Assembly: GCF_004785955.1 (NCBI RefSeq)
Contig: NZ_SJER01000009.1
Location: forward strand, 1 to 64,000
Direction of reading: 5' to 3'
Source: Halostella litorea
GTDB lineage: Archaea; Halobacteriota; Halobacteria; Halobacteriales; Natronoarchaeaceae
DNA: 64,000 nt
Under the pieces are notes generated by a model. The model was not told the DNA's origin. It did no database searches and saw only the letters and a program-made list of their open reading frames with translations. The translations under genes and the position numbers were made by a program. Shown here piece after piece: positions 31,171-59,500 of the stretch (positions are counted from its first letter, which is position 1; each line of letters begins with the position of its first letter).

Positions 31171-31193
31171 CTGCGGACTACCTGTATTCGATA

Positions 31194-39556: not shown

Positions 39557-42283
39557 TCAGTAGCTCGTGATATCCCGATCTCCGAGCACCCGCGTGTACG
39601 TGTCGTCGCCGGTCACGTCCGCGAGCCGTCCCGCGAGTTCACGCAGATCGTCATCGACGTCCCACTTTTCGACGTAGTTCTGGACCGCCTGGCCCTTCTC
39701 GTAGCGGTACCGGAGGAACTGGAGCTTGTCGAGGTTCGAGAGGTGGTCGCCGCCGTCGCCGTTGACGTGCTCCTGGATGTACGCTTGGCGCTTCTCGTTG
39801 TCCCACGTGCCGAGTTCGAAGCCGTCGTTCTGGTTGTACAGGCGCATCTCCTTGAGCTCCTCCGGCGTGGCGTTCGTCCCGCGACAGAGCTTGTTGACGT
39901 CGTCGTACGAAGGGTTGTCCGTATCCAGCAGATCAACAAACACATCTTCAACGCCAATATCGCTGGCATCTTGGATGATACCGTAGATCTCCTGAACGAC
40001 TTCCTTCGCACTCATGACCTCACCGTCCCGCTGAACCTTTCCGTGGTGTTTGGAATATTCTCGGAAACAGTCGCCCATTTCCATCACGCCAATATCGCCT
40101 TGTGAGAGGTTTCGCCCTTCTTCGAGTCTCCTACGAGTTCGTCTTGCAGTCCGGTATATTTCCCGGCGAAGAGAATCCCAGCTCATCGCAGTCGTCTCTT
40201 CAGCAGGGCGAGCAACGACTAGGATATCGAATGAAACTGCTTTTCCAATTACGTTATTTCCAAATTTCACCTGATCTGCGCTAATGGGATACGTAGCCGT
40301 CACCTCAAATCCAACATCGCATAGTGCTTCCAGCAATTCACCCCACGACTCAGAGTCGCTATGGTGGTACGTGAAGGATAGTACACCATCTTTCTTCAAC
40401 ATGCGCTTGATATTGGCAAACCCTTGTTTGATTTCTGACTCAAATTCTTCAGGCCCCTTTCCTTGAGCAGGATTTGCTACTATACTGGACTCACTATCTG
40501 TCAGTTCGGGCTCAAATTCATCATACTCGTCTTGAAGTATGAGGCGTTGCCAGACATAGAAATAGTTAGACAACTCAGAATATATAACATTATCATAGTA
40601 GGGTGGGTCAGTTATTACCGCATCAAAGAGTTCATCAGTTTCCAGATCGCGCATATCGCCACAATGAAGAGTGAAATCTTCGCCAATTGGCGTGTTGAAT
40701 TCCCCTGTTTCTACTGTATCTGGCTCTGACAAAGACGGGTCCGTAATGAACTCGGGCTTTTCATCCTCTTTAGGGTATTTTATATATCGCTCTGTTGGGG
40801 AACGTGCATACTCACACCCCCGAATAATCATATCCCAAGTAGACTGGAATGTACCGATACCGTACTCTGTACCCCATAAGTTCCCCTCCGCAGGCTTATG
40901 AGGCGGATCAAACGAATTTGTATTAAACATATTAACAGAATGGTTCCGGCCTGCGTTGTAGCCAATCATCATACTGTTATAATTGAGAGACTCGGTGAAC
41001 GCCAGAAGAAGATACTCACGTGCCTGCTTGTGCTCAACTTGGCTGATTTCCTTCAGGAGGGTACTTAAGCAGAGAAGCTGACGGCTATTGTACATATCTG
41101 TCCACTCTTCATAGCCCTTCTTCAGGACGTTAAATCCGCCACCGATCCCTCCCTCAAAGGCGGAACTATCTGTTTTGATCCCAACCGGTATCTTGCCATC
41201 TGGAATATACCTAGTGAGGTCTTTGCTGCTCTCCCACTCTGATTCAGCAGTTTGGTACAGCTCCCGGTCACTGGCGGACGCCGGTTTGTAAGACTTTATT
41301 GCCTCTTTACCCATCCCTTCATCATCACAGGTAGGGCAATAATATTCGATAGCATACAGACGCTTGTCAAAACCTCCTCTTTCGTCAATTCTATCAATTA
41401 TTCCATATCGCTGACCACAGGAGCGGCAAGAATACTTTCCATCAGATACCGTCCCTTCTTCTGGCACAAACGTATTTCCGCATTTACAAGAGCACTTCTC
41501 CCGCCAGTCGTCAACCAAAATCACAGACTCACATTCCGGACAGTAGACGTGGTACTTGTCTTTATTATCGTATCGACCCTTTCCTACCCTAAAGTCATTG
41601 AACAGAGGGACCATCTCACCGCAGGACGTACAATCCAACTCTTTAGCCCACAAGTAGTACATTACATCCGCACGGTGATCGCCATTCGGGCAGTCAGTCT
41701 CGTAATATTGTGTTATCTTATCAGCTACGCGTTCCTGTAATTTGTCGAACTCCTGTTCTAGTTTCTCAATGTTAGCTTGCCCTGCTTCCAACTGCTTCTT
41801 AGTAATGAACCAAGCTACGGGGTTGAGATCGTTCCCTACGACCTCAGCACCGAATCTCGAAGCCTCAACTAGAGAGGTTCCACCCCCCATAAACGGATCT
41901 AAAACGCGTTTGTTCTCTACAGTTACGTCCTTGGGGTAGAGTTCCCACAGATCCTCCGGATCATCCAATGAAACAGATTCGACAAGCGAATGGATTTCCT
42001 CGGCCGAGGATGAAAAACTGTCTAGTTTTTCATTCTCTTGAGTGGGATCAGTAACCTTGATTTCTGATTCATTATCCAGAAGTGAATAAAGGGAAACAGC
42101 CCGGAACACGCAACCCAGACGACGAGCCCACCATTTGTGCATAGTGTAGACAGGGCGATACCATTGCTTAGCTCGTCCCTCTTTTTCACCGATATCGTTT
42201 ATCAATTCAATTGGGAACCCGCGTTCAATGGGGAGTTCCGTTCGCTCCTGCCGGCCCTGTGAAGGTCCAGATTGCTCAGACAT
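39557..42283 (-). CDS. DUF1156 DNA methyltransferase
   Basis: The 908-residue protein has an N-terminal DUF1156 segment (MHKWWARRLGCVFRAV), methyltransferase motif I DPFMGGGTSLVEA (near residue 128) and a long insertion with several CxxC zinc pairs (CTSCGE, CPEC, CSCKCG, CRSCG, CPTC). The catalytic motif IV DPPYYDNV follows near 557, of the adenine/cytosine amino-methyltransferase class. DUF1156 methylases are known components of methylation-linked anti-phage loci with DUF499 ATPases and helicases, as here. Base composition inside the gene shifts: the part around 40.4-41.9 kb is AT-richer than its 3' end. No specificity subunit is seen. Confidence 0.85.
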   Translation of the reverse strand: MSEQSGPSQGRQERTELPIERGFPIELINDIGEKEGRAKQWYRPVYTMHKWWARRLGCVFRAVSLYSLLDNESEIKVTDPTQENEKLDSFSSSAEEIHSLVESVSLDDPEDLWELYPKDVTVENKRVLDPFMGGGTSLVEASRFGAEVVGNDLNPVAWFITKKQLEAGQANIEKLEQEFDKLQERVADKITQYYETDCPNGDHRADVMYYLWAKELDCTSCGEMVPLFNDFRVGKGRYDNKDKYHVYCPECESVILVDDWREKCSCKCGNTFVPEEGTVSDGKYSCRSCGQRYGIIDRIDERGGFDKRLYAIEYYCPTCDDEGMGKEAIKSYKPASASDRELYQTAESEWESSKDLTRYIPDGKIPVGIKTDSSAFEGGIGGGFNVLKKGYEEWTDMYNSRQLLCLSTLLKEISQVEHKQAREYLLLAFTESLNYNSMMIGYNAGRNHSVNMFNTNSFDPPHKPAEGNLWGTEYGIGTFQSTWDMIIRGCEYARSPTERYIKYPKEDEKPEFITDPSLSEPDTVETGEFNTPIGEDFTLHCGDMRDLETDELFDAVITDPPYYDNVIYSELSNYFYVWQRLILQDEYDEFEPELTDSESSIVANPAQGKGPEEFESEIKQGFANIKRMLKKDGVLSFTYHHSDSESWGELLEALCDVGFEVTATYPISADQVKFGNNVIGKAVSFDILVVARPAEETTAMSWDSLRREIYRTARRTRRRLEEGRNLSQGDIGVMEMGDCFREYSKHHGKVQRDGEVMSAKEVVQEIYGIIQDASDIGVEDVFVDLLDTDNPSYDDVNKLCRGTNATPEELKEMRLYNQNDGFELGTWDNEKRQAYIQEHVNGDGGDHLSNLDKLQFLRYRYEKGQAVQNYVEKWDVDDDLRELAGRLADVTGDDTYTRVLGDRDITSY

Positions 42284-42442
42284 TATTCAGTATATAGAAG
42301 CGATTACGCAGGAGCCCCATAAGTGTGCGTTCTTTCAGCGGTAGAGAGACACCCGGGAATCCACCCCTGAGTCTGAGAGTGATCTAAGCTTGATCAGGTT
42401 GAAAGTACATGGTTTGATACAGGCAAAGGTCAGACAGATAGT

Positions 42443-43603
42443 ATGGCCGCCCCAGCGTGGTTTTATTCAACGATTGCTCAGGCATCGGCAGCAATTATCG
42501 GCCTGACAATTGCGTTTACAGTCTCTACTCATTTGAGCCGAAGGGAACGCCGGCGTAGGCGTACTGATAAAGCACGAGAAGAGGCAATCGAACTCAAACA
42601 GCGGTATCAGCCGCTAATGGACACAATCGCACGGACAGTCAGAGAAAATGCAGATGTTAATGTTGACAACACACGCTACGAGTTAGAAGACGTCTCTTCA
42701 GTTGAATCATGGGCCAGTAATAAGAATACACCAGTCTCTGCGCAAATCTGGGCACTCACCTCGGGGATTTCACATACCCTCTCGGATTTTACTGTACTTT
42801 CCGCAGAACCCACACGCGAGCAGTTAGCAAAATTGCAGAATGCCGTCCAAGAACTCGAATACAGTCTGCTCTACCGCGATAATGGAAACGATAGAATTCT
42901 CTATACAGAGATAACGGGTCAACCACCCGAAGAAGCGGATGGATTCTATTATCACGATGACATACTGGAAGACGCTGATCAGATCAGTGCGTGGTTAGAC
43001 AGAAATCGACGAACACGAGACGAGAACATTGCAGGTGCCCGCCCAGAGGACTTGACAGGGAAGAATATTTTCTCCCTTGTGACGATAATGGAAATCCTCG
43101 ATTCGGACCTAGATAGCTTCGGAGTTAATGCCGTAGAAAGTGACTTGACGGCGGACTTCCTGCAGCGCAACTTCGGATCACATGTTCTTTCTACCAGTGC
43201 GAGACTCGCAGTTTTTGGTATCTTCCTGCCAATGCTGTTTCTAATCAGTTCACCAGATCTTTCGTTGCCGATGCAGGTTGTCGAAGCCATCCCCTCGATA
43301 TTCTTCGACGTAATCGATGGTTCCCATATCCTACTTAATCTACTTGCCCAGATCACAATACTCTCTGCAAGTGCGTTCTACACGGTTCGGCTCTTCACCA
43401 TTATGAGACTAGATATGAACACGACTGTCCCCACAATGGGAGAGCTTCTAGGAGTTGACAACGGAGACGAGTCAAGTACTGAATCAGATACGACCTCTGA
43501 GAATGGACGATTGGCGAGATTGCTACGGTATGTTGCTCAGTGGGCTCAGATGAAATCCCTCCCCAAAGATCTTCAGGACGATATCCAAGAAACCGGATCG
43601 TAG
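42443..43603 (+). CDS. Membrane protein beside the DUF1156 gene, possible effector
   Basis: The 386-residue protein has an N-terminal TM helix (about residues 12-28, SAAIIGLTIAFTVS) followed by a very basic coiled segment (RRERRRRRTDKARE). A soluble helical domain follows, then two C-terminal TM helices (about 252-270 and 294-314), ending in a charged tail. It is divergent from the methylase gene and convergent with the DUF499 gene. The topology is that of membrane effectors in defence systems, but the family is not recognised. Function is inferred from location only. Confidence 0.5.
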   Translation: MAAPAWFYSTIAQASAAIIGLTIAFTVSTHLSRRERRRRRTDKAREEAIELKQRYQPLMDTIARTVRENADVNVDNTRYELEDVSSVESWASNKNTPVSAQIWALTSGISHTLSDFTVLSAEPTREQLAKLQNAVQELEYSLLYRDNGNDRILYTEITGQPPEEADGFYYHDDILEDADQISAWLDRNRRTRDENIAGARPEDLTGKNIFSLVTIMEILDSDLDSFGVNAVESDLTADFLQRNFGSHVLSTSARLAVFGIFLPMLFLISSPDLSLPMQVVEAIPSIFFDVIDGSHILLNLLAQITILSASAFYTVRLFTIMRLDMNTTVPTMGELLGVDNGDESSTESDTTSENGRLARLLRYVAQWAQMKSLPKDLQDDIQETGS

Positions 43604-43617
43604 CACTCCCAATAACG

Positions 43618-46600
43618 CTACTTTTGGAAGGTGATCTCGATCTTTAGGCTCGACGCCTCTTCCGGCATCCGCTCAAACAGGTCCTGCACCTTCGTGTAGT
43701 CCTGTTCGGACCGCAACGTCAAGCTGACCTGCGTCCGCTCAACGTCGGCGGTCCCCTGAAGAGCACCGGGAACACCCTCCCTGTCGGGCAGCATGAAGGT
43801 GACATCGCCGTACTCGACGCTCCCCGTCTGGTGGTTGTTTCGCCACTTGCTCCGCATCGCAGCGACGTCGTCGCCGTTGTACTCGAAGCGCCACGTATCA
43901 GCCTCTGTGTCGGCCTTCCGGAACGGATAGCCGGGCACCCAGTCGGTGGCCTTGTCCGACCCGGTTGTGTTGACCACGTACTCCGGTTCCTCGTCCTTCC
44001 CGATGTTCTCCAGCAGGAACGTCCGCACCATGTACTCGGTGACGCTGTCGTCGAAGCGGTCGGTGACCTTGTTGACGGTGAACTGGTCACCCGGTTCCAA
44101 GTCCTCGATGTACGCCAGAATCTGGTCACCGATTCGGTCGGACACCGTCGGGACAATCTTGACGGTGGTCGGCTCGCGATCGCCGAGCGATCCGAGATAC
44201 CGACCGCCGGCCTCCAGCACGTAGTCGTCGACGAGGAACTCGTTGACCGCCTCACGAGCAACCGATTCGGTCTCGTCTGGTGGCAGGAACACCGCTTCGT
44301 CCGACCGAACTTCCCCGATGATCGTGTCGAGATTCGCGTACCCGTCGTCGTCGATATGCTCCTCGATACGGTCCACGAGGGACGACGCACCGACGACCTC
44401 CGCACCGCCAACGTCGCGAAGCGTCGCGTCGGACTGCGGCTTGTCGAGGATCTCGTTCCCTTTCACGATGACGTACTGGTCCTCACGGGCGAGCCGGCCG
44501 ATAGCCCGCATCACAACATCGTGACTGTCGCCGTCGATCCAGATCTCGCCGTCCTCAACGAGTTCCAGTTCGAAGTCGCCGATATCGAGCGCAGTCGTCC
44601 CGCTCCCGAAGCGCTGGCGGAGCTCCTGCTCAGCGTCATCGACACCCCACACGTCCACGTCATCCTGCTGAACGAGTACAGTGTCCAGCGAGCTTCCGGA
44701 AAGGTCGTCGCGGAATCCGCCAGTATCACGGGCGAGTACCGGCTTGCCGTCGAGCGCTTCGACGGTTGCGTTCAACACGTCGTTGGCACTGCCAGGAATC
44801 GGGAGTTCCGGGTCACGGAGGAACTGCTCGTAGATATCCTCGACCGATATTTCCCCACGTCGCTCCAGAAGGTCCTCGGCGATGTCCCAGACGTGCGACT
44901 GGAGGTCGAACGGGTCAGCTGCCGCAGAGTCCGCAATGTTCGAGGCGTCGAGTTCCGCCTCGTCGAGGACGAAGACATCGAGATCCATCGGCTCCACTTT
45001 CGCCCACTCGTCATCGTCCATCAGATTGTCGCCGTCGATCACATCGCCGTACAGGAGTTGAAGCTCTTCACGGAGCTCGTTCTCCTCCTGCTCCATCATA
45101 CTGCGAATCGATGTGCGGATTTCGTCGTCGAGAGACTCGTCGGCAAGTACCTGTCGCGCGCCCTCGATGTACCGTGCCTTGTCGATATACCGTGTGCCGG
45201 ACTCGATGGCCTTGTCTCCCGAGGGCTGGACGAACACGAGTGTGTTGCGCCACTCGCGTCCACGACCGTCGTTCGTGATGACCTTCTTCACTTCGTCCTT
45301 GGTCCACTGGCCGTCCTTCACGACGACCTTCACCTCACGGTCGTCCGGGATATCCCGCATATCGTTCGTCCGGAACCCGACTGGGTGCGCGTTCGAGCCG
45401 AAGATATCCGTGATGAAGTCCGCGATCTCGGCCTTCGCTGACGTCTCGGACACATCCACGGCTGCGTTCCGGATGAGTGCGTTCGGGTTCTGCCGGTCGC
45501 GGATGGCGTACTTCCCGTTCAGCTTATGGAGGTGCCATGCAACGCCGTGCAATCGTTCGAGGTTGAGGACGACGTCGGAGACGAGATCACCTGTCTGGTA
45601 GGCACCTATCACGATCTCCGACACCTCCGCACCCTCGCCTTCGCTCGGCTTCAACGAGTAGAGGAGAATCGTGTTCAGGATGCGACGACCGTGGGGCACT
45701 TCATCCGTGTCAACACGACTTTTGATGTCACCGGTAGCGGCGTTCAGTCGTTCGTAGTTGATCTTCGCCAGTTCGTCCTCAAACTCGATGGCGTCGATGT
45801 CGCCGTGTGTGATCAGGTCCGTCTGATCCTGCATCTGCAAGAGGACCTTCGAGAAGAGGTAGATCATCCCGCGCGTGTTCTGGTTGCCCTCATCGGCGTA
45901 GTAGCGTGTCTCGAGGGCATCCAGAAGCACAGGGTGGAACGGATAGAGATCGTGCATCTCCGACAGCAAGTCGTCGGGGAGATCAACGTGCCCGTCGGCT
46001 TGGTCATATGCGTCGAAGTACCCGTTGACGATCTCGCGGGCCGCACTCTCGTTTACGGAGTCGATCAGGCGGTGGCGCAGGACCTCGCGCTTGTCCACCT
46101 GGTTGTTCATGTTGACCTCGACCGCCTGTTCCCGATTCAGAATGTCGTGAACCTCAGATCCTTCGCGGAGCACCGAGACGATCGTGTAGAGTTCGAGATC
46201 CGAGAGCGCGGTCGATTCGAGCAGTGACTGGAGGAAGGCCTTGTTCGCGCTCTTTCGGTCACCCTGAAGCGTATCGAACCAGTCCTCTAATTCGTCCACG
46301 AAGAATGCGACCGTGGTGTCGCCGACAGCCTCCTGAATCGTCTGCATATCGGGATAGCCACCCGACTCGAACGTTCCAGGATCGTAATCGAGCGCCTCGA
46401 AGAACGGCTCCCAGAGGTACTCGTACTGTTCGTTCTGCATCGCAACCGTGATCGGCGTCGCCGACTCCGGAAGCGCAGCGTCGAACCCTTCAACCGAATC
46501 ACTTGCCCACGCAGCCGCGGCGTCGGGATCGTCGAAACAGTGGTACAGTGCCACCATCTGGTGAGACTTCCCACTGCCGTACGGGCCATAGAGAATGTGC

Positions 46601-46833
46601 GTGCCACGTGGGTCGTCCCCAGTCAAGGAATCACGAAGAATCGAAAGGGCCTCCCGAAGGCCCTGAGTCATCAGCGTCCGTTCGAAAAAGAGTGCTGCGT
46701 CAGACTCGAACTCGTCATCGTCATCAACATTGTAGAGTTTTACCTGCCCATCGATCTGTCCTTCTTCCCGAAGCTCGCGGCTGAGAGTCACCGTGTCTTC
46801 GAGCGTATTTGGTAAGGATCCCGTCTGTGCCAT
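43618..46833 (-). CDS. DUF499-type P-loop ATPase
   Basis: The 1071-residue protein has an N-terminal P-loop (ILYGPYGSGKSH, about residues 80-91) and a Walker B-like strand TTVAFFVDELEDW near residue 175. A long C-terminal half follows with winged-helix-like repeats and a terminal beta domain (VSLTLRSEQDYTKVQDLFE). DUF499 ATPases are the motor protein of DUF1156-linked defence loci and are distantly related to the PglY/BrxC ATPases of BREX. Start ATG at 46833 is preferred over a TTG/GTG upstream. A TTTATT element about 35 bases before it could be the TATA box. Confidence 0.8.
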   Translation of the reverse strand: MAQTGSLPNTLEDTVTLSRELREEGQIDGQVKLYNVDDDDEFESDAALFFERTLMTQGLREALSILRDSLTGDDPRGTHILYGPYGSGKSHQMVALYHCFDDPDAAAAWASDSVEGFDAALPESATPITVAMQNEQYEYLWEPFFEALDYDPGTFESGGYPDMQTIQEAVGDTTVAFFVDELEDWFDTLQGDRKSANKAFLQSLLESTALSDLELYTIVSVLREGSEVHDILNREQAVEVNMNNQVDKREVLRHRLIDSVNESAAREIVNGYFDAYDQADGHVDLPDDLLSEMHDLYPFHPVLLDALETRYYADEGNQNTRGMIYLFSKVLLQMQDQTDLITHGDIDAIEFEDELAKINYERLNAATGDIKSRVDTDEVPHGRRILNTILLYSLKPSEGEGAEVSEIVIGAYQTGDLVSDVVLNLERLHGVAWHLHKLNGKYAIRDRQNPNALIRNAAVDVSETSAKAEIADFITDIFGSNAHPVGFRTNDMRDIPDDREVKVVVKDGQWTKDEVKKVITNDGRGREWRNTLVFVQPSGDKAIESGTRYIDKARYIEGARQVLADESLDDEIRTSIRSMMEQEENELREELQLLYGDVIDGDNLMDDDEWAKVEPMDLDVFVLDEAELDASNIADSAAADPFDLQSHVWDIAEDLLERRGEISVEDIYEQFLRDPELPIPGSANDVLNATVEALDGKPVLARDTGGFRDDLSGSSLDTVLVQQDDVDVWGVDDAEQELRQRFGSGTTALDIGDFELELVEDGEIWIDGDSHDVVMRAIGRLAREDQYVIVKGNEILDKPQSDATLRDVGGAEVVGASSLVDRIEEHIDDDGYANLDTIIGEVRSDEAVFLPPDETESVAREAVNEFLVDDYVLEAGGRYLGSLGDREPTTVKIVPTVSDRIGDQILAYIEDLEPGDQFTVNKVTDRFDDSVTEYMVRTFLLENIGKDEEPEYVVNTTGSDKATDWVPGYPFRKADTEADTWRFEYNGDDVAAMRSKWRNNHQTGSVEYGDVTFMLPDREGVPGALQGTADVERTQVSLTLRSEQDYTKVQDLFERMPEEASSLKIEITFQK

Positions 46834-46900
46834 CTTGATACTTAAACAAACCTCAGTGGCACCCAATAAACACTATGGTCCCGCGAATTCAGCAGCTTTG

Positions 46901-47461: not shown

Positions 47462-47615
47462 CTTTGATTACCTACCCTAATGTTATTTCACACCCACTTA
47501 GTGATTCGGTGGGAGTTCAGCTGCATATTTTCACTTCCGAAATGGAGACACAGCTGCCTGGTTGCTGATTTGTAGTCACAAAACGTATTTCACGCACACC
47601 TGCTTCTACGAACAT

Positions 47616-49370
47616 ATGAGCGGGTACGACCTCGTCGATATCGAGGTCACACACGAATCTGCTGACGATCTTCTGGATTCACTGTCTGAGGACGGTACTG
47701 ATGGGAGTCATCTGCAGAGTATCCAGGCACTCCGTCTGCAAGCAGGCCAACCAGATTCAGAACTCCGGTCACTGAAAGAGTTGGACGAGAACGCCGTCAA
47801 ACTTCTCGAACACCAAGTGGATGCAGCCTACCGGGCTCTCTTCGAAATGGACGGAAAAGCACTCCTGGCTGACGAGGTCGGTCTCGGGAAGACCATCGAG
47901 GTCGGGATGATTCTCAAAGAGATGCACTTCCGTGAAACGGACGAATCCGTCCTCATCCTCACTCCTGCACAGTTGGCCAAACAGTGGCAGGCTGAACTCC
48001 GAGAGAAATTCGGTCTTGACTTCGTCTGCAACTACGACGACGAATTCGAAGATTTCGACGCCCACGATTACATCATTGCAAGCATCGATACTGCGAAGAG
48101 CGAGCGACATCGTCAGACGGTTCTTGACCGCAACTGGGACGTTCTGGTACTCGACGAGGCCCACTACGTCAAAAACGAAGAGACGGACCGTTACGACCTG
48201 ATTGACCGACTTTCCTACAACTACGCGTTCTTCCTGACGGCGACGCCGATTCAGAACGAATTGACTGACCTGTACAACGTCGTCTCGCTACTCCGCCCTG
48301 GGCTATTCGGCACACGCGACGTCTTCCACCACTACTTCGTGAACAGCAATCAGGAGACACTGGTGAATCGAGACGAGCTACAGGATCGGTTGAACAAAGT
48401 GATGATCCGGAACCGACGGGAAGACACAGATATCGATTTCACAGATCGGACTATCGACACACGGACGTTCGATCCCACCCCGAAGGAACGTGAACTCTAC
48501 CAGGCAGTCTCCGACTACGTCAAAGGTGCGTACAGTCAGGACCAAGGCCAGAAGCTCGTATTGATGCTCCTTCAGAAGGAGGTCGTCAGCAGCCCGGTCG
48601 CACTCAAGAAGACCATCGAGAAGCGACTCTACGACCAGTCGGAGCTCACGCACGCAGACGAACTGGAGTCGATCTTAGATCTGATCGATGAGATCGATAC
48701 CGTGACCAAACAGGAACGGCTCTTGGATATCGTCGAAGAAGCCCGCGACAACGTTGAGATGGGGAGAGTCATCGTCTTCACTCAGTTCCGAGCAACCCAA
48801 CAGCAGATCCTCGACAGACTCGCCTCGGAGGGATACACAGTACACGCATTCCACGGCGGGCACTCAAGCAGCGAGAAGGAGCAAATTGTCGAAGACTTCG
48901 AAGAAGAGGGAGGAATCCTCGTCTCAACCGACGCTATGAGTGAAGGCCGTAACCTACAGTTTTGCAATATATTAGTCAATTTAGACTTGCCGTGGAATCC
49001 GATGCGTGTTGAACAACGTATCGGACGCGTACACCGGATCGGCCAGAAGCGAGACGTATTCATCTTCAACATGGCGTTGAAAGATACAGTCGAAGAGTAC
49101 GTACTGGAACGGTTGTACCACAAGATCGATCTCTTCCAGCAGAGCGTCGGAGAACTGAGTTCAATCTTGAGCCGCTTGGAAGAGTCGGGAACAAGCTTCG
49201 AAGACGAGATCTTCGAACGGTTGGTGGCCGCTGATTCCGAAGTCGATCTTGAGAACGACTTCGATGCGATGGCAGTTGACCTCCAGGAACAGCGCGAACT
49301 CGCCGACAAACTTGAGGAGTTCAATAGCGGTGTGTTCGAAGGATTCGATCTGGGGGAGAGCGATGACTGA
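47616..49370 (+). CDS. SNF2/RapA-like helicase of the methylation-linked cassette
   Basis: The 584-residue SWI2/SNF2 protein has Walker A ADEVGLGKT at about 85-93, DEAH motif VLDEAHYVKN near 183, SATP-like TATPIQNELTDL, motif V STDAMSEGRNLQF, and motif VI QRIGRVHRIGQKR. It matches the RapA/HepA branch in length and in its C-terminal coil. In DUF1156/DUF499 defence loci an SNF2 helicase is a standard component, likely remodelling or translocating on target DNA. Its start ATG at 47616 is chosen; the upstream frame is not coding-like. Its end overlaps the next gene (ATGACTGA). Confidence 0.9.
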   Translation: MSGYDLVDIEVTHESADDLLDSLSEDGTDGSHLQSIQALRLQAGQPDSELRSLKELDENAVKLLEHQVDAAYRALFEMDGKALLADEVGLGKTIEVGMILKEMHFRETDESVLILTPAQLAKQWQAELREKFGLDFVCNYDDEFEDFDAHDYIIASIDTAKSERHRQTVLDRNWDVLVLDEAHYVKNEETDRYDLIDRLSYNYAFFLTATPIQNELTDLYNVVSLLRPGLFGTRDVFHHYFVNSNQETLVNRDELQDRLNKVMIRNRREDTDIDFTDRTIDTRTFDPTPKERELYQAVSDYVKGAYSQDQGQKLVLMLLQKEVVSSPVALKKTIEKRLYDQSELTHADELESILDLIDEIDTVTKQERLLDIVEEARDNVEMGRVIVFTQFRATQQQILDRLASEGYTVHAFHGGHSSSEKEQIVEDFEEEGGILVSTDAMSEGRNLQFCNILVNLDLPWNPMRVEQRIGRVHRIGQKRDVFIFNMALKDTVEEYVLERLYHKIDLFQQSVGELSSILSRLEESGTSFEDEIFERLVAADSEVDLENDFDAMAVDLQEQRELADKLEEFNSGVFEGFDLGESDD

Positions 49371-50526
49371 CGCTTCGATTTCTGTCACGCAATCTGTGGT
49401 AGAGCAGTTCACAGAACGGTATCTCCGATCTATCGGCTGTTCCATCGAGCGAAGTGACGATCGCTGGCTGGTGTCGGTACCCGATGACACAGACACCGAG
49501 ATTACCCACGGGAGACACACACTCATCCGGGGGGAGGGTACTCCAGACGATGACGATGATAGAACGAAACGGCTGCATCCAGAGAGTGCGTTCTTTCAAC
49601 AGCTACTCCGTGAGGCGGGTGAACGATCGCCGTCTGGCAAGCTGTCGATAGAGAGTGAATCTGACATCGAGAGTCCGGAGTGGATCCAAAACGGCGCTGT
49701 CGAGGTACAGAGCGCACAGTTCACTCCGTACTACGACCGCACAGCCATCGTGGTTCTCTTTCGTGTCGGTATCGAGACCGTCAGTGAATACCAGCAAGAG
49801 CTTCTCCGCGCCATCGCTGTAGACGCGCGGTCAGAGGAGAGCCTTCCAAAGCTGGCGGAGACATTCCTCGACACCACCACAGTAGAGACCGAGACGGCCT
49901 CTGATGGCGCTGTACAGCTGACCAAGACAGATGTGCGACCTCTCCTCGAAACAGCTCGGGAACTGTTGCTGGAAAGCGTACAGGGGCAGCTCGACGACAT
50001 TCATCGAGAAGCCTCGCGTGCGGCAGATTCAGAAGTTGAAGAGTACCGTCAGATGCAACAACAGCGTATCCAGGAGCTACAGGAAGAACACTCGAACCTG
50101 TCGTCGAAGATCAACGATCTGAGTGAGAAGATCAACACAGGAGACGAGGATTCACGCGTCCGGGCGTTGCGAGAACGGAAAAAACTCAAATCGGAGTACG
50201 AGGAACTCGACGAGACGCTCAGCGAATTACAGGAGCGCCGTGACAGTGGATTCCCCAATCGACAACGAGAAATCCGAGAGCGGCACTCACTCGACGTGCA
50301 GGTCACACCGCTTACTCTGACGGAAGTTGAGTACGAGCGAGGCGAGATCGATTTCGAACTTATCGACGGTAGCATACATCAAACCGTCACTCTCGGATAC
50401 GGGAGTGGGATCGGTGTAGTCGATACTGTTCGATGTTCGTCGTGTGAACGCGAACTCACCGAACGCAACCCGCTTCAAACGATTTCAGATGGACTCAAAT
50501 GCCAGAGTTGTACCAAAGAGCGGTGA
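49363..50526 (+). CDS. Coiled-coil zinc-ribbon partner of the SNF2 helicase
   Basis: The 387-residue protein has an N-terminal alpha/beta domain (about 1-180), a coiled coil (about 220-320, RIQELQEEHSNLSSKINDL onward) and a C-terminal zinc ribbon (CSSCERELTER...CQSC). It overlaps the SNF2 gene by 8 bases and is co-translated, so it is probably its dedicated partner for DNA or substrate recognition. No named family. Start ATG 49363; the longer frame extends into the SNF2 gene only. Confidence 0.65.
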   Translation: MTDASISVTQSVVEQFTERYLRSIGCSIERSDDRWLVSVPDDTDTEITHGRHTLIRGEGTPDDDDDRTKRLHPESAFFQQLLREAGERSPSGKLSIESESDIESPEWIQNGAVEVQSAQFTPYYDRTAIVVLFRVGIETVSEYQQELLRAIAVDARSEESLPKLAETFLDTTTVETETASDGAVQLTKTDVRPLLETARELLLESVQGQLDDIHREASRAADSEVEEYRQMQQQRIQELQEEHSNLSSKINDLSEKINTGDEDSRVRALRERKKLKSEYEELDETLSELQERRDSGFPNRQREIRERHSLDVQVTPLTLTEVEYERGEIDFELIDGSIHQTVTLGYGSGIGVVDTVRCSSCERELTERNPLQTISDGLKCQSCTKER

Positions 50527-50700
50527 TACGGCGACCCCTCGATAGTTCAATAGAGCAAAGCCCCGGAGCGAATAGAGCCAGTACACTGATTAGTCAAGGA
50601 AGCCGCCGAACGAGTTGGATATCTGGAACTGAAGGCAACGTCAGGGCTACCGAAGTGAGAATTTGCTGAAAAGATTCGAAACCTCGGTGAAGTGGCGCTG

Positions 50701-50805: not shown

Positions 50806-51004
50806 TGGTCGACCTAATTTTGACTCTTCTACCGTATAAACGCATGCATGGCACCAGACAAGTAACAAGCAGCCTCAGTTCATCTCGGTCGGTGCTGAGT
50901 GCGCGGATGTTCTTCTCTGCTCTGAGGAATCCGTTGCCGCCGAACAACTTGGCTCCGAACGAATTCCGGTTATGTCCAAGGAGATATCTGGATCTGCGGT
51001 ATGA

Positions 51005-53866
51005 CTACTCGAGAACGCTGGCTTCTGAACGCTGTTCTTGACTAATCAGCGCGACTAGGTCCGCTTTCGAGAGTGGGTCAATATCAACACGGACCCCTTG
51101 TGCAGTATAGAAGATCCCTGCGGTCACTTCTCGACCAGAGAACCATTCATTTAGCACGTGATAGTACACGCTGAGTTGCTTCCGATACTCATCCTCGGCG
51201 TGTCGCCCGAGGTCGGTTTTGAAGTCGATAATCTCGACGGTATCGGGACGAAGGTGAACGAGGTCGACGATTCCTGAGATGGTGACCTGCTCTCCGTCGA
51301 CAGCGAGTGGCAGATACGCATCCTCCTCAACTCGCAGCTCACCATCGAGCGAGTCTATGAACGACTTGATGTGACGCTCGTCGTCGTTCGAGGGTTCGAC
51401 ATCCCCCTCCAGTACGTACCGCTCAGCGAATTCGTGGGTCTGCGTTCCGAACGCGGTCCCTCTTCCGTCGTCGACGTCCTCGAACACATCGTCGCGCATG
51501 AGCGTGTGCGGCGAGTGTCCGACCGGGCCGTCCGGCGTCGGCACGGAAATCTGCAAGTGTGCCTGCGTCGTCTCGTCGATGTCGTCTTCCTGAATGTCGG
51601 GCTCCAGTTCCTCGATGTCGACCGGGAGCTCTTCAATGAACGTGTTCGGGCTCTCGGCTGCAGCGAACACGAGATGGCTCTCAGCCCGCGTCATCGCGAC
51701 GTAGAGCAAGCGTCGCTCTTCGTCGTATCCACGCGGCAGACACTTCCGGAGGACGTCAGTCCGCCAGTTGTCGTGAATATGTGGATACCCGTGATCATCG
51801 GCGTAGAGCTTTCGCTGGCGTAGTCCAATCGGATCGTCGAACGCGATCGCGTTACTGTTCCCGCCTGACGGTGGGAAGCAATGGGAGTTCATGTTCGCGA
51901 GCACGACAATAGGGTGCTCGAGTCCCTTGGCCGCATGGATGGTCTGGACCGTCACCGAATTCATCCCAGCGCTCGCGTGGACCTCGTGGGTGCTTCCGTC
52001 CTCGATGCCGCGTTCGATGAATCGGATGAGGTCACCTCGTGTCAATGTCGTCGCGCTGTGGACGGACTGAATCGTCGTCAGCAGCACGTCGGCGTAGGCC
52101 CCGTCGTAGTCGTACTGGGAGAATACACGCTGGGCAACCCCACCGACCGTCTCCAGGGCCGCAAGCTTCGACTTGAACGCCTGCATGTTGGTGGGGTACT
52201 CCTCGCTATCGAGGACGTGTTTGACCTCGTCGAGCGTGTAGCCAGCTTCTTCAAGCACGACTGCCCATCCCCGCTCCGCGTCGGATTCGAGAATTCGCAG
52301 CCACGCCAGGAGAAGCTTCGCCGGGTCAGACCGGAACAACTCGATGCCTCCTTCGTACGCCATCGGTAATCCATACGCCTCAGCGACAGAGAGGAGTTCT
52401 CGGCCGAAGTCACGAGTCCGGGTGAGGACGGCGATATCACCGTACTCTGGCAGACGAAGTTCCCCATCCTCCTCGACCTGATACGTATCGTTCCCGACGA
52501 TCTCCTGAATCTTGGTCAGAACGGCTTCGTGTTCGTCTTCGTGTTGAATCGACTCTATCTGAGAGTTCTCGTGCGAGGCGTTCGAGGAGAGTGACACAAT
52601 TCTATCTCGCACGGCCGTCTCGTCGACATCGTCTGTGCTCGCCGCAGGCGTCACTAGGCTGTGCTCGGAGAAGTCGAGGATGGCCTGCGTCGAGCGGTAG
52701 TTCTCGACCAGTTCGATATCGATGATCGGGCGGGTCGCCCACGATACTCGCTCATGATCCTCGTTGAGTTCGTCGACGAACCGATCCAGCCGGGATTCGA
52801 ACTCAGTAATGTTCTCGACGGCGGCGTACTGGAACGAGTAGATGCTCTGTTTCCAGTCACCGACGACACAGACGTTGTTCGTGTTCGCGAGCAGGAGTGC
52901 GAGTTTGAACTGGATCTCGCTGGAGTCCTGGAACTCGTCGATCATCACGTACTCGAACGCGACATCGTCGCGGAGTCGGTGGTCGTCACAGAGCAGGACG
53001 AACGCGAACAGCTGCAGGAAGCTGAAGTTGAGGTAGTTCCGACTGAGTGCGAATTCAAGATACTCGTGGTAGACGTCGTGAACGAAGTTCTTGAGGCCCT
53101 CTCGCTGTTCGTCAAACACCAGCTGTGCGACGCCATCAGGAACCTGCTTCTCACCCCATCCGCCACGGATCTCGTCTTCCTCGGGCGCGTCTGGGAGGTA
53201 GCATTTGTCGTTGCCGTAGCCGCCGAGTTTCGAGCGTAGCTTGGACTGCTTGTTCCCGTCGTTCCGGGGCTGGTTCAGCTCGTCGAAGATCTCGCGGAAC
53301 GTCTCGAAATCACCGTCCAGATGCCGCTCGCCGTTCCGGTACCAGCCATCGGCCGTCGGGAAGACACCTTTCGCCGCAAGCTGATGGATTAACCCGAGGA
53401 GTTCGACTGGTTCCTCGACGGCGCGGAAGAAGTCGTCGTACTCGGGGTGGTCGTCGCTGAACCGACGGATAAACTCGCGGAACTGCACCTTCTCGACGTT
53501 CTCGTCTTCGAGGACACGCGTAGACCCCGTAATCCGGTCGTCGATACCGAGGAGCGTCGGTGCCTCGAAGCCGTGTTCCATGAGGATGTCGTGACAGAGG
53601 CTGTGGAACGTCTGGATCGGTGCGTCCGAGAGTTCACGCATCCCGTAGTCACAGTGGGCGACGATTCGGTCCTTCATCTCCGTCGCCGCGTTGTTGGTGA
53701 ACGTCACGAGGAGGACGTCCTCAGGCTCGACGTCGTCTTGGTCGACGATTTCGGCGTAGCGACGGGTGACGGTGAACGTCTTTCCAGTCCCTGCGCCGGC
53801 GTCGACGACGTGGATGCCCTGTTTGCTGTCGATGAGGTCTTGCTGTTGGTCGTTTGGTGCAGTCAT
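51005..53866 (-). CDS. AddA/UvrD-like helicase-nuclease
   Basis: The 953-residue UvrD superfamily-1 helicase has a P-loop DAGAGTGKTFT (about 22-32), motif II MIDEFQDSS near 308, a motif IV-like region (ENYRSTQAIL), TIHAAKGLEHP, and ERRLLYVAMTRAES. A C-terminal PD-(D/E)XK nuclease follows (VEIIDFKTDLGRHAEDEYR, near 880). This is the AddA layout. Together with the following AddB-like gene, overlapping by four bases (ATGA), it should form a helicase-nuclease that resects double-stranded DNA ends. In this island it is probably part of the defence cassette rather than chromosomal repair. Confidence 0.9.
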   Translation of the reverse strand: MTAPNDQQQDLIDSKQGIHVVDAGAGTGKTFTVTRRYAEIVDQDDVEPEDVLLVTFTNNAATEMKDRIVAHCDYGMRELSDAPIQTFHSLCHDILMEHGFEAPTLLGIDDRITGSTRVLEDENVEKVQFREFIRRFSDDHPEYDDFFRAVEEPVELLGLIHQLAAKGVFPTADGWYRNGERHLDGDFETFREIFDELNQPRNDGNKQSKLRSKLGGYGNDKCYLPDAPEEDEIRGGWGEKQVPDGVAQLVFDEQREGLKNFVHDVYHEYLEFALSRNYLNFSFLQLFAFVLLCDDHRLRDDVAFEYVMIDEFQDSSEIQFKLALLLANTNNVCVVGDWKQSIYSFQYAAVENITEFESRLDRFVDELNEDHERVSWATRPIIDIELVENYRSTQAILDFSEHSLVTPAASTDDVDETAVRDRIVSLSSNASHENSQIESIQHEDEHEAVLTKIQEIVGNDTYQVEEDGELRLPEYGDIAVLTRTRDFGRELLSVAEAYGLPMAYEGGIELFRSDPAKLLLAWLRILESDAERGWAVVLEEAGYTLDEVKHVLDSEEYPTNMQAFKSKLAALETVGGVAQRVFSQYDYDGAYADVLLTTIQSVHSATTLTRGDLIRFIERGIEDGSTHEVHASAGMNSVTVQTIHAAKGLEHPIVVLANMNSHCFPPSGGNSNAIAFDDPIGLRQRKLYADDHGYPHIHDNWRTDVLRKCLPRGYDEERRLLYVAMTRAESHLVFAAAESPNTFIEELPVDIEELEPDIQEDDIDETTQAHLQISVPTPDGPVGHSPHTLMRDDVFEDVDDGRGTAFGTQTHEFAERYVLEGDVEPSNDDERHIKSFIDSLDGELRVEEDAYLPLAVDGEQVTISGIVDLVHLRPDTVEIIDFKTDLGRHAEDEYRKQLSVYYHVLNEWFSGREVTAGIFYTAQGVRVDIDPLSKADLVALISQEQRSEASVLE

Positions 53867-56451
53867 CGCGACTCACCTTCCAGGATGCAATCGCGGTTGT
53901 CCACGTACCGATAGTTTGGATCGCCACCGAGTCCCTGAACCGGAAAGCGCTCATCACCGGCACGACGGTCGTTCAACTCCGATAGGCGATCTTGGACGAA
54001 CTGCTCGAATGCATCCACATCGCCGGTGAAATAGTTCTGGTTGCGAATACGGAGCAAGTGTCTCAGGGCCTGCTTGCAGCCGTTTTTCACGTACTTGTAG
54101 TCCCCGACATCAGCGATCAGTCGTTCTGTGATCGCGTCGCCGAATTCCGATTCGATGAGTTCGTCGCTGTCGCTGGTGTCCGGGAACTCATACCTATCCA
54201 CCACAGCCCGGTAGATTTCGTACGTCGACTTCGAGAAGGTCTTATTACAGTCGTTCGCGGCGTCTTCCTGCAGTTCCGTGAAGACATCTGGGCTCGCGAT
54301 GTATTCCTCGAAGGTGACTGGATAGTGGGTCACCGTAGTGAGGCAGTCTTCGAGAGAACCATTCCCAGTCACCACATCATCAAGCGTTTCGAGGAAGTGG
54401 AAGAACGTGAATCGCAGTTCCTCATCCGGGTGCTCAGTCCGCTGGTGAGCGAGGTACAGCAACGCCTGGAAGTTCGGTTTGTCGCTCGGTGGATCAAGCG
54501 CCGAATGCTTTACAATCGAGTATGCTGACTTCTTTGAGCCACTCTTGTAGTCGAGGAGTCGGCTCGGGCTGTGAACGAGGTCGATCTTACCCTTTAGCCC
54601 GAGATCAGTGTTCTCGAACCAGCGTTCAGTGTGCGACGCATCGATGGGGCGGTCGTAATACTCGGCGAAGAAGTTCTCTCCCCAACCACCGTCAGGCGTC
54701 ACCAGGCCGTCACCGTGAGGCAGGTTTGCATCGAGGAACTCGACGATGGTCTGGAGGCCGACGCGGTACTTGGTGAGTCTGACCTCCCGATCGACGCCTC
54801 GGAGGAACGGGTCGACCTCGTCGAGAATGACTGCGGCGACCTCATCGAGTGTGTCCGTCGTGATGGCGTCCGGATGTGAGACGTAGAACTCTGCGAAGTC
54901 GTGGAACAGGTTCCCTTCTCTGAAGTGCTCCTTGTCCGGGTTGTCGACGAGTCGACTGAAGAAATAATCGCGGGGGGAGTTGACGTAGGTGTTCAGGCTC
55001 GACTGGCTGAGTGCGGTGACGTCCTCGGGGGAGACATCGAGTGGTTCTTTTTCGAATCCGTCCTGTGTCGTTCGAGACGCCCGTGAATGCTGCAGTGAGT
55101 CCAAATCACTGAATCGGTCGAACTCCTCATCGAACAGTTCCTCGAAGTATAGACACGGGGTGACGGGCGTTCCACCGGCGGTGTCCTGCACGAGGTAGTA
55201 CTGGTCGACGCCGTTCTGCAGGAGGAGTTGGAACTGCCGGATGTTCCGCTCGAACTCCTGATCTCGGTCGACCCACGGGCGACGAGGCGACGAATGTGTC
55301 CAACCTTCGTCAAGGCCGAGGTAGAACACGACGGCGCGGTCGACGTGAGCAGCCGATTTTGCATCTGCCAATAGGACACCTTCGTTCTCCCGATCCACAG
55401 GCACTTCATACGACTGTAGATAGAACTCGAGACGGTCAACTGCCGGTTCGGTGACGGCGTCATCGAGGAGGCCGAGCGTCGCGAGTTCCTCTCTGAAGGC
55501 GTCGATAGAGGCGTCCGTGACTGCTTCGTATTCGTCGATGGCCTCCTCGAATGTGCGGGCACGAATCTCATCACGGAACTCAAGGAGCCAGTCTACTTCC
55601 GGGTGGTCGAGGTCGTAGAGACGCTTCTCGTCGTGCTCGATGTCGACGGGCATCCCGAGCTGGGTGAGGAGTGGTCGAACGTCGCCTACTCGTGTATCTC
55701 GGCCAGCGTGAGCACTTCGAAGGAGCTGTAAGAATGCGCGGTGACGGGCATCGTCGTTGAACCCCGGACCGCCGTAGTATGGAATCTCTGCCGCTTCCAG
55801 CGCCGACTCAATGAGCGAGGAATACTGACTGGCTGCATCGAGGACGACAGCCACGTCATCGGCGTTCTCCGGTGTGACCGTATCGAGGACCGCGTCGACG
55901 ATTGCGGCCGGTGAATCGAGAATGCGGAAGGATGGATGATCGAATAACCCCTCGGTGAACGGGTCGACCGTCTCGTAGTCTGGGGGAAGGATCGAGCGTT
56001 CGAGTTCGGTAAGCTGCTTGAAGCCGACAACAGCGACCGACGTGTCGGCTTCGATACTGTACTCAGTGAGACGGTTAGACGTCGTGTCCATCTCTGCGAT
56101 ACAGTCGACAGCAGTGTGCGTTGCCGTCGTCGCGAACTGCTCGTAGTCCAGAATAGCGTCAGCCGTCCCCTGATACTCCCAGCACTGGAGGATGTTCCCG
56201 ACCGCATAGGACGTCTCCTTCCAGTTGAGATCAGTCGTCTCAATGATTTCGAGAAATGCGAGTCGATCCTCGGCTTGTTCTCGGCGTCGAGCAGCCAGGC
56301 GCCGTGGTGTAATCGCGAACGGCCCGAAGTGGGGTTGATCAAGACGCCGGTTCAGGGCACTCGCCATCGGCGCATCCGGCACGAGCACAAGGTCGAAATC
56401 CTTGCATTCCTCGTAGAGAGAATCGATAGACTTCGCTCGTGTAATTGACAC
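53863..56451 (-). CDS. AddB-like PD-(D/E)XK nuclease
   Basis: The 862-residue protein starts with a GTG at 56451, as no ATG is well placed. An inactivated-helicase-like body (no P-loop seen) is followed by a C-terminal nuclease core LGLKGKIDLVHSPSRLLDYK near residue 635, the D...DxK motif of PD-(D/E)XK enzymes. An iron-sulphur cluster of the AddB type is possible: Cys at 519-ish is not clear, while CNKTFSKSTYEIYR and CKQALRHLLRI are near the end. It pairs with the AddA-like gene; the two form a resection or restriction complex. It overlaps that gene by four bases. Confidence 0.75.
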   Translation of the reverse strand: MSITRAKSIDSLYEECKDFDLVLVPDAPMASALNRRLDQPHFGPFAITPRRLAARRREQAEDRLAFLEIIETTDLNWKETSYAVGNILQCWEYQGTADAILDYEQFATTATHTAVDCIAEMDTTSNRLTEYSIEADTSVAVVGFKQLTELERSILPPDYETVDPFTEGLFDHPSFRILDSPAAIVDAVLDTVTPENADDVAVVLDAASQYSSLIESALEAAEIPYYGGPGFNDDARHRAFLQLLRSAHAGRDTRVGDVRPLLTQLGMPVDIEHDEKRLYDLDHPEVDWLLEFRDEIRARTFEEAIDEYEAVTDASIDAFREELATLGLLDDAVTEPAVDRLEFYLQSYEVPVDRENEGVLLADAKSAAHVDRAVVFYLGLDEGWTHSSPRRPWVDRDQEFERNIRQFQLLLQNGVDQYYLVQDTAGGTPVTPCLYFEELFDEEFDRFSDLDSLQHSRASRTTQDGFEKEPLDVSPEDVTALSQSSLNTYVNSPRDYFFSRLVDNPDKEHFREGNLFHDFAEFYVSHPDAITTDTLDEVAAVILDEVDPFLRGVDREVRLTKYRVGLQTIVEFLDANLPHGDGLVTPDGGWGENFFAEYYDRPIDASHTERWFENTDLGLKGKIDLVHSPSRLLDYKSGSKKSAYSIVKHSALDPPSDKPNFQALLYLAHQRTEHPDEELRFTFFHFLETLDDVVTGNGSLEDCLTTVTHYPVTFEEYIASPDVFTELQEDAANDCNKTFSKSTYEIYRAVVDRYEFPDTSDSDELIESEFGDAITERLIADVGDYKYVKNGCKQALRHLLRIRNQNYFTGDVDAFEQFVQDRLSELNDRRAGDERFPVQGLGGDPNYRYVDNRDCILEGESR

Positions 56452-58335: not shown

Positions 58336-58344
58336 TTAAATGAG

Positions 58345-59460: not shown

Positions 59461-59500
59461 ATAGTTTATTCCCACTGCTCATTTCATCGCACAATTTTGC

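What the first reader, a model, noticed from the sequence alone, without database searches (positions are those of the whole stretch)
39557..56451. Methylase, ATPase, SNF2, AddAB-like cassette: candidate combined defence system
One 17-kb block brings together a DUF1156 methyltransferase, DUF499 ATPase, SNF2 helicase with a zinc-ribbon coiled-coil partner and an AddA/AddB-like helicase-nuclease. DUF1156/DUF499/SNF2 loci are known as predicted methylation-linked anti-phage loci; adding an AddAB-like resection unit and several membrane proteins is new to me. The methylase may mark self DNA while the helicase-nuclease destroys unmarked DNA. There is no PglZ and no specificity subunit.
Basis: partly seen in the sequence, partly recalled or inferred. 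Interest (0 to 1): 0.75.

Follow-up and report, generated by a model that had tools for sequence, protein, structure and literature searches.

The report
Methylase–McrBC defence system beside AddAB pair
A salt-loving archaeon carries a seven-gene block that probably marks its own DNA and destroys foreign DNA with an McrBC-type nuclease; the neighbouring AddAB-like helicase-nuclease is a separate, exchangeable neighbour rather than part of the system.

Summary
In 194 haloarchaeal genomes the genes that travel together are McrB, McrC, a 127-aa protein, the DUF1156 methylase, the DUF499 ATPase, the short SNF2 helicase and its coiled-coil/Zn-ribbon partner (window 31125-50526). McrC lies within 20 kb of 29 of 30 close DUF499 homologues and 0 of 14 distant ones; the coiled-coil partner of 29/30; the 127-aa protein of 28/30. 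Their divergences run in parallel (DUF499-McrC rho 0.94, 28 loci). AddAB does not follow (rho 0.07, 11 loci; 0.16 in the nine linked loci), and near-identical AddAB occurs with 51%-different DUF499 and the reverse.

AddAB-like pairs nevertheless sit within 40 kb of 15/30 DUF499-McrBC loci and 20/40 PglZ (BREX) loci, but only 4/57 strong HsdR and 2/83 Cas1 loci: a loose neighbour of BREX-type islands.

Best reading: a BREX-related (DUF499/Hma-type) restriction system in which McrBC takes the place of the fused nuclease or PglZ. A new variant of a known kind; function inferred, not tested.

The parts
31125..32423 (+). McrB-like AAA+ GTPase (432 aa)
   Evidence: AAA_5 1.8e-17; Walker A GPTGTGKT and NMSD (NxxD) conserved in 25 aligned sequences
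32423..34183 (+). McrC-like PD-(D/E)XK nuclease subunit (586 aa)
   Evidence: PF10117 1.7e-10; PD...LDSK conserved in 27 aligned sequences; within 20 kb of 29/30 close DUF499 loci
34242..36602 (+). 786-aa protein of unknown family, variable cargo
   Evidence: no Pfam match over its cut-off, none in PADLOC; in 3 of 99 segments
36675..37058 (-). conserved 127-aa protein downstream of the methylase, no known family
   Evidence: 28 of 30 places at >=39% identity lie near a close DUF499; no convincing Pfam or PADLOC match
37177..39306 (-). GmrSD/DUF262-type type IV restriction protein, variable cargo
   Evidence: GmrSD_N 3.3e-31, GmrSD_C 9e-17; cluster in 6 of 99 segments
39557..42283 (-). DUF1156 DNA methylase, HmaB-like
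   Evidence: PF06634 31.4 bits (cut-off 24), N6_N4_Mtase 31.3 bits; HmaB 5.3e-32; DPPY conserved in 41 aligned sequences
42443..43603 (+). putative membrane protein (by eye), cargo specific to this locus
   Evidence: singleton cluster; no family over cut-off; an HNH endonuclease is annotated at this place in the Haloglomus relative
43618..46866 (-). DUF499 AAA+ ATPase, HmaC-like (likely start about 46833)
   Evidence: PF04465 40.4 bits (cut-off 23); HmaC 4.6e-18; start in the close relative
46901..47461 (-). 186-aa protein, variable
   Evidence: cluster in 4 of 99 segments; no family
47562..49370 (+). short SNF2 helicase, DrmD/BrxH-like, no fused nuclease (likely start about 47616)
   Evidence: SNF2-rel_dom 5.4e-36; DrmD 7.7e-85, BrxHI 2.1e-72, HmaA 7.2e-57
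49363..50526 (+). coiled-coil/Zn-ribbon partner of the SNF2 helicase (387 aa; overlaps it by 8 bases)
   Evidence: within 20 kb of 29/30 close DUF499 loci; two-helix coiled coil at pLDDT 82-93, rest of the model poor
51005..53866 (-). AddA-like UvrD helicase + PD-(D/E)XK nuclease; neighbour, not part of the unit
   Evidence: UvrD-helicase 3.7e-51, PDDEXK_1 3.9e-07; independent divergence
53863..56451 (-). AddB-like PD-(D/E)XK protein; neighbour, not part of the unit
   Evidence: PDDEXK_1 8.8e-12; matches in 88 of 194 genomes, 85 of 94 places not within 40 kb of a close DUF499
56503..59475 (-). P9 and P10, two accessory genes upstream of AddB
   Evidence: replaced by c53-c52 in other islands with the same AddAB; no family over cut-off
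59681..60988 (+). integrase-like protein, near the edge of the mobile island
   Evidence: Phage_integrase 4.9e-04, below the curated cut-off; a site-specific integrase is annotated in the Haloglomus relative

Best explanation
Window 31125-50526 is a restriction-like defence system of the DUF499-centred BREX-related (Hma) kind, in a haloarchaeal variant whose nuclease is McrBC. Three gene groups: DUF499 - methylase - 127-aa protein; SNF2 - coiled-coil partner, divergent from it; McrB-McrC, converging on it. Shown: gene order, co-occurrence, parallel divergence, and intact motifs in the methylase, both motors and McrC. Inferred: the methylase N6-methylates host sites; the DUF499 ATPase and a split RapA/BrxHII-like SNF2 motor scan DNA; on unmodified invader DNA they recruit or license McrBC, which cuts with nucleotide hydrolysis. 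GmrSD, the 786-aa protein and the membrane protein are cargo. AddAB is an independently evolving, facultative neighbour that could degrade cut ends.
For: In 194 genomes McrC lies within 20 kb of 29/30 close DUF499 loci (0.38 expected for random positions), 0/14 distant DUF499, 0/40 PglZ, 0/57 HsdR, 1/83 Cas1; coiled-coil partner 29/30, 127-aa gene 28/30; in reverse (within 25 kb) 29/35, 29/29 and 28/30 of the places kept. The order ZnRCC< SNF2< DUF499> MTase> 127-aa> McrC< McrB< recurs; SNF2-ZnRCC lies beyond McrB in a sub-group. Distances: DUF499 vs McrC 0.94, 127-aa 0.92, partner 0.91, McrB 0.90, SNF2 0.78 (0/500 permutations each), vs AddB 0.07 (146/500). Catalytic motifs are conserved. Six of the 14 distant DUF499 loci were looked at: all six have a weakly PglZ-like gene and a methylase, four have a relative of the 127-aa gene, and this McrC is near none of the 14, as expected if McrBC replaces PglZ.
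Against: No functional data. McrBC is classically modification-dependent (known), an odd partner for a protective methylase. McrBC is a separate converging group, and the methylase itself is inverted in several loci (G030, G032, G081 C6, G088, G135). Six of 35 McrC places have no close DUF499 nearby and one DUF499 (G142) has no partner in the 53 kb read. The 29/29 for the partner follows after 14 of 43 rows were dropped. Parallel divergence can also arise from joint transfer of linked but independent systems. The PglZ-like call rests on one protein (PADLOC 5.1e-06; Pfam 19.1 bits, below cut-off 25). The partner as the split C-terminal half of a RapA-like helicase rests on layout: profile comparison was weak and fold search returned coiled coils.
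Confidence: 0.66

Rival explanations
1. One reading: DUF1156/DUF499/SNF2 plus AddAB form one system, the methylase marking self DNA and the AddAB-like helicase-nuclease destroying unmarked DNA.
For: AddAB-like pairs of two lineages lie within 40 kb of 15/30 close DUF499 loci (0.66 expected), far above HsdR 4/57 and Cas1 2/83; nuclease and helicase motifs conserved; AddAB, partner, SNF2 and DUF499 together at >=96% identity in Halorubrum, Haloglomus and Halobacterium loci and at 84-98% in Halonotius, as far as those loci reach.
Against: Half the close DUF499 loci lack AddAB within 40 kb; 85 of 94 AddB places are not within 40 kb of one. AddAB distances do not track DUF499 (rho 0.07, 11 loci; 0.16, 9 loci). 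The same AddAB stands beside a BREX operon in G141 and, by shared gene clusters, G169.
Confidence: 0.08
2. AddAB is an optional helper of BREX-superfamily islands in haloarchaea: it degrades DNA cut or stalled by PglZ- or McrBC-type effectors, and is shuffled between them.
For: Within 40 kb of 15/30 close DUF499 and 20/40 PglZ loci against 4/57 strong HsdR and 2/83 Cas1 (Fisher DUF499 vs HsdR 9.4e-6, vs PglZ 1.0); with all 109 HSDR_N rows 6/109; partner swapping.
Against: 76 of 94 AddB places are within 40 kb of neither close DUF499 nor PglZ; 0 of 14 distant DUF499 loci have either lineage within 40 kb. Relatedness of loci and plasmid or island location are uncontrolled; AddAB could be the mobile island's own gene or a general repair enzyme.
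Confidence: 0.35
3. Mark-and-destroy: the methylase tags foreign or replicating viral DNA and the methyl-dependent McrBC cuts the tagged DNA.
For: A DUF499-methylase locus co-diverges with a type IV-type nuclease that has canonical NxxD McrB and active-looking McrC motifs.
Against: Host DNA would need protection from its own methylase; related DUF499 and BREX systems are thought to methylate self DNA.
Confidence: 0.12
4. Two independent systems (a DUF499/Hma-type system and a McrBC type IV system) that merely stay together as neighbours, McrBC serving as back-up against modified viruses.
For: Separate converging gene groups; a plasmid island pairing BREX with a type IV enzyme is in print (PMC8565348, seen only as a search listing with the start of its abstract), and GmrSD is named as such a partner in PMC12839542 (section 35, part 1).
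Against: 29/30 linkage, recurring order, and this McrC branch largely confined to it (29/35).
Confidence: 0.22

Closest known systems
DUF499-centred BREX-related (BR) systems / Hma (PMC12839542: sections 27, 28, 29, 33 and part 1 of 35 read; PMC8565338: four passages)
   Same: DUF499 ATPase, DUF1156 N6-methylase and a Swi2/Snf2 helicase in one locus
   Different: helicase lacks a fused PD-(D/E)XK or HKD nuclease and stands as two genes (SNF2 + coiled-coil protein); no PglZ found; McrBC and a 127-aa protein are near-constant partners
BR type 3 (DUF499-methylase-helicase-PglZ-iSTAND)
   Same: helicase without fused nuclease; four of six distant haloarchaeal DUF499 loci looked at, all with a weakly PglZ-like gene, share a relative of the 127-aa gene
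   Different: here McrBC instead of PglZ
McrBC type IV systems; branches linked to methylases or a DISARM-like system (PMC11090510: sections 6 and 7 read)
   Same: McrB NxxD GTPase and McrC nuclease near a methylase and an SNF2 helicase
   Different: DUF499 and the 127-aa gene; that paper's legend names YprA, SWI2/SNF2 and PglX, and defers these branches to a later paper
BREX / DISARM helicases BrxHI, BrxHII, DrmD
   Same: SNF2 core scores best with DrmD and BrxHI profiles; the degenerate-nuclease plus coiled-coil C-terminus described for BrxHII resembles the partner's layout
   Different: two genes instead of one; no PglZ match in the genome; other BREX/DISARM genes were not searched for
AddAB / RecBCD-type helicase-nucleases
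   Same: UvrD helicase with PD-(D/E)XK domain plus a PD-(D/E)XK partner, adjacent overlapping genes
   Different: patchy and mobile in haloarchaea; two lineages (862/953 aa and about 1110/1277 aa)

Membership tests
DUF499-centred BR / Hma system | DUF499 ATPase | tested here: met
   PF04465 40.4 bits, cut-off 23
DUF499-centred BR / Hma system | DUF1156 N6-methylase | tested here: met
   PF06634 31.4 bits, cut-off 24; DPPY; N6 activity itself not testable here
DUF499-centred BR / Hma system | Swi2/Snf2 helicase in the locus | tested here: met
   found within length limits in 27 of 29 loci
BR type 1 | C-terminal PD-(D/E)XK nuclease fused to the helicase (79% of members) | tested here: not met
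   SNF2 protein of 602 aa without a nuclease family; none in the partner
BR type 2 | HKD nuclease fused to the helicase, and stand-alone DUF3780 | tested here: not met
   no HKD/PLD nuclease family in the SNF2 protein, no DUF3780 among the 20 genes scanned
BR type 3 | PglZ in the core locus | tested here: not met
   no PF08665 match at E<=1e-5 in G000, none among the 20 genes scanned at E<=0.1
BR type 3 | iSTAND component | tested here: inconclusive
   127-aa protein matched no family; its single-sequence model was unusable, pLDDT 37.7
McrBC | McrB GTPase with Walker A and NxxD | tested here: met
McrBC | McrC with PD-(D/E)XK motif | tested here: met
   PF10117 40.8 bits, cut-off 23.9; motif
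McrBC | modification-dependent, GTP-driven cleavage | not testable with these tools
   biochemistry
AddAB | SF1 helicase with C-terminal RecB-type nuclease plus PD-(D/E)XK partner | tested here: met
AddAB | Chi-regulated end resection | not testable with these tools
   biochemistry

The most novel reading that the evidence does not exclude
A fourth effector class of DUF499 systems in which a methyl-dependent McrBC nuclease is wired to the system's own methylase, so that methylation tags DNA for destruction (or licenses McrBC) instead of only protecting self, with AddAB as an exchangeable clean-up enzyme shared with BREX.
Probability: 0.13. Interest if true: 0.85.

Novelty: new variant of a known kind. 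Interest (0 to 1): 0.57.

Why it matters
It turns an over-wide guess into a defined seven-gene unit whose parts diverge together, and asks a sharp question: why would a methylase-bearing BREX-related system use McrBC, an enzyme known for cutting methylated DNA? It also extends the pattern that DUF499 systems swap nuclease effectors (PD-(D/E)XK, HKD, PglZ, now probably McrBC), and shows a loose, testable association of AddAB-like pairs with BREX-type islands in haloarchaea.

Tried and rejected
AddAB as a core part: rejected on co-occurrence, divergence and partner swapping. AddAB linkage as pure chance: also rejected (15/30 against 0.66 expected for random positions in a 3.5-Mb genome). Membrane and accessory proteins as parts: rejected, not constant. 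PbeC as a relative of the coiled-coil partner: only weak matches in the coiled coil, and PbeC is described as SMC-like (PMC6459918, passages). RapA-type helicase C-terminus by profile: best E 0.0014 with probability 17% for one of four long helicases, nothing for the other three; not shown. Fold search of the partner: no hit at E<=0.001; the VIA rows are coiled coils around residues 201-312; RapA was not in the rows shown, which proves nothing. PDB sequence searches gave nothing usable. Scans of viral contigs returned no relative of the 127-aa protein or the partner. Phylum-wide draw: this McrC family in 10 of 246 genomes, all 10 in the same order; how many of the 246 lie outside the order is not shown.

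Rows dropped before the counts: DUF499 30 close + 14 distant of 45 rows (one 53-residue fragment dropped); AddB 94 of 107 rows (short pieces dropped); second lineage 43 from 45 rows (one fragment dropped, two pieces joined); McrC 35 from 37 rows (three pieces of one gene counted once); partner 29 of 43 rows (28 at 35% identity or more, plus G124 at 29% with one stop inside; dropped: a contig-end fragment in G049 and 13 rows at 23-55% in long, short or broken frames, among them short pieces in G191 about 27 kb from its McrC); 127-aa gene 30 of 34 rows (four at 30-33% told apart, all beside distant DUF499); HsdR 57 of 109 rows (strong ones; with all 109 the count within 40 kb is 6); Cas1 83 of 85; PglZ all 40. 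Loci are not independent: G030/G088 and G110/G134 are near-duplicates; with one of each removed and all HsdR rows the Fisher value is 9.2e-7, still without control for phylogeny or replicon. The 11-locus AddAB comparison includes G003 and G065, where AddAB lies more than 100 kb away; one search uses only the nine linked loci.
Full report
What is in the window. The window is the first 64 kb of a 95,938-base contig (C8) of a 3.75-Mb genome. A 38-kb stretch of the Haloglomus halophilum plasmid NZ_CP101167.1 (DUF499 99.4% identical) carries the same core gene series, from an integrase through AddAB, SNF2, DUF499, methylase, DUF262 and McrC to exonuclease VII genes, with some cargo changed, so the source is a haloarchaeon. 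The SNF2 partner at 49363-50526(+) overlaps the SNF2 gene by 8 bases and is conserved. Further left are a GmrSD gene, a 127-aa gene, McrC and McrB. PADLOC profiles name the methylase HmaB (5.3e-32), the ATPase HmaC (4.6e-18), and the helicase DrmD (7.7e-85) ahead of BrxHI (2.1e-72) and HmaA (7.2e-57).

Which genes travel together. I searched the same 194 genomes of the class with five window proteins, one relative and three Pfam families. DUF499 matches fall into 30 places at 44% identity or more and 14 near 30% (one fragment dropped). I fetched neighbourhoods of the 30 and mapped them. The order ZnRCC< SNF2< DUF499> MTase> 127-aa> McrC< McrB< recurs, with different cargo genes between; the methylase is inverted in several loci, and in a sub-group two methylases flank DUF499 and SNF2-ZnRCC lies on the far side of McrB. 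Counts within 20 kb: McrC at 29 of 30, coiled-coil partner at 29 of 30, 127-aa gene at 28 of 30; G142 has none. In reverse (within 25 kb), 29 of 35 McrC, 29 of 29 partner and 28 of 30 127-aa places kept are near a close DUF499; dropped rows are listed under Tried and rejected. Against other anchors McrC is near 0 of 14 distant DUF499, 0 of 40 PglZ, 0 of 57 HsdR and 1 of 83 Cas1. Random positions would give 0.38 of 30.

Do they diverge together? Pairwise protein distances across loci correlate: DUF499 with McrC 0.94 (28 loci), 127-aa 0.92, partner 0.91, McrB 0.90, SNF2 0.78, none reached in 500 label permutations. AddB and AddA correlate with each other (0.97) but not with DUF499 (0.07 and 0.05; 146 and 165 of 500 permutations reach it; 11 loci). 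In the nine loci where AddAB is within 40 kb, DUF499-McrC is 0.88 and DUF499-AddB 0.16. Direct swaps: the window and G085 have AddB 4% apart but DUF499 51% apart; the window and G098 have DUF499 6% apart but AddB 51% apart. AddAB 94-96% like the window's stands beside a BREX operon in G141 (PglZ 6e-184, BrxC 0, BrxB 2.3e-71), and a 92-95% copy beside the same gene clusters in G169; upstream of AddB the pair P10-P9 alternates with c53-c52. AddAB is therefore a separate, exchangeable element.

The AddAB link that remains. Two lineages of AddAB-like pairs exist: the window's (862/953 aa; AddB matches in 88 of 194 genomes) and a longer one (about 1110/1277 aa; 41 of 194). The longer pair also lies beside DUF499 in Haloprofundus halobius (64% identical to the query) and, at 31%, in Halosimplex aquaticum and Halobacterium salinarum plasmids, the last beside a distant DUF499. 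Either lineage is within 40 kb of 15 of 30 close DUF499 loci and 20 of 40 PglZ loci, but 4 of 57 HsdR (6 of 109 with the weak rows), 2 of 83 Cas1 and 0 of 14 distant DUF499 in the 194 genomes. Fisher gives 9.4e-6 against HsdR and 1.0 against PglZ; loci are related and replicon type is not controlled, so these are indications. 76 of 94 AddB places are near neither anchor. This is a loose association with BREX-type islands.

How it probably works. Motifs for catalysis are conserved: McrB GPTGTGKT and NMSD (NxxD), McrC PD...LDSK, DUF499 GPYGxGKS, SNF2 DEVGLGKT and DEAH, methylase DPPY. Published work groups DUF499 ATPase, DUF1156 methylase and Swi2/Snf2 helicase as BREX-related systems whose nuclease is a fused PD-(D/E)XK (type 1), HKD (type 2) or PglZ (type 3) (PMC12839542, sections read). 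None of these was found here and McrBC is near-constant, so I infer that McrBC is the effector. Of the 14 distant DUF499 loci I looked at six: all have a gene of one family that is weakly PglZ-like (one member tested: PADLOC 5.1e-06, below Pfam's cut-off) and a methylase, and four have a relative of the 127-aa gene; this fits a swap of PglZ for McrBC but does not prove it. The coiled-coil partner has a mixed N-terminal region, a two-helix coiled coil and a C-terminal cysteine cluster; [quoted passage not shown] I read the pair as a split helicase of that type, on layout only; profile and fold comparisons did not establish it. Homologues of SNF2 and partner also occur together elsewhere, the partner resembling the N-terminal third of a 1095-1185-aa protein.

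Is it known? Papers holding both DUF1156 and DUF499: one, PMC12839542, whose main text has no 'mcrb' or 'mcrc' (supplements not read). COG1743 with McrB: one, PMC7641849, whose three passages shown describe COG1743-DUF499-SWI2/SNF2-nuclease without McrBC in that operon. PMC11090510 notes McrBC branches linked to methylases and to a DISARM-like system and defers them. Further searches (20 of 26 papers listed; 5; 0; 3; 2; 15 of 27 listed) showed no title or abstract start describing this unit, but most of those papers were not opened, and subscription papers and supplements were not searched. I class it as a new variant of a known kind. On re-checking I lowered confidence in the best reading from 0.68 to 0.66, because the PglZ-swap argument rests on six of 14 loci and one weak profile match.

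Noticed in passing
window 2026-4555(-): Oligonucleotide cyclase (SMODS; PADLOC Cyclase 4.3e-161), a 2TM effector-like protein (5.7e-10) and a TGT-family protein (5.9e-136) side by side: a likely CBASS-type operon.
   Followed up: partly
window 13644-22386(-): TrbL/VirB6-like protein (6.8e-136) with weak TraG/TrwB/HerA-like ATPase matches: a conjugation-like module of the replicon.
   Followed up: no
window 26059-27111(-): Exonuclease VII large subunit (1.1e-51); the Haloglomus plasmid relative also has xseB beside it.
   Followed up: no
window 29882-30769(+): Protein of unknown family (c17) found at the edge of several AddAB islands: next to AddA in G085, G141, G169 and L032, but beyond McrB in the window.
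   Followed up: partly
L211 7348-19081: Halobacterium salinarum pKBTZ03_58: distant DUF499, a 310-aa gene, a methylase-sized gene, a 129-aa gene, then a PD-(D/E)XK and UvrD pair of the longer AddAB lineage.
   Followed up: partly
L208 1976-11577: A Piwi-domain (Argonaute-type) gene is annotated beside the longer AddAB-like pair next to the DUF499-McrBC locus in Haloprofundus halobius.
   Followed up: no
L187-L191: SNF2 (55-58% identical) followed by 1095-1185-aa proteins whose N-terminal third resembles the coiled-coil partner; a PbeA-like helicase (4.5e-40) lies nearby in L188.
   Followed up: partly
L078/L158, L155-L157, L159, L160, L162: Sub-group in which two DUF1156-type methylases flank DUF499.
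   Followed up: no
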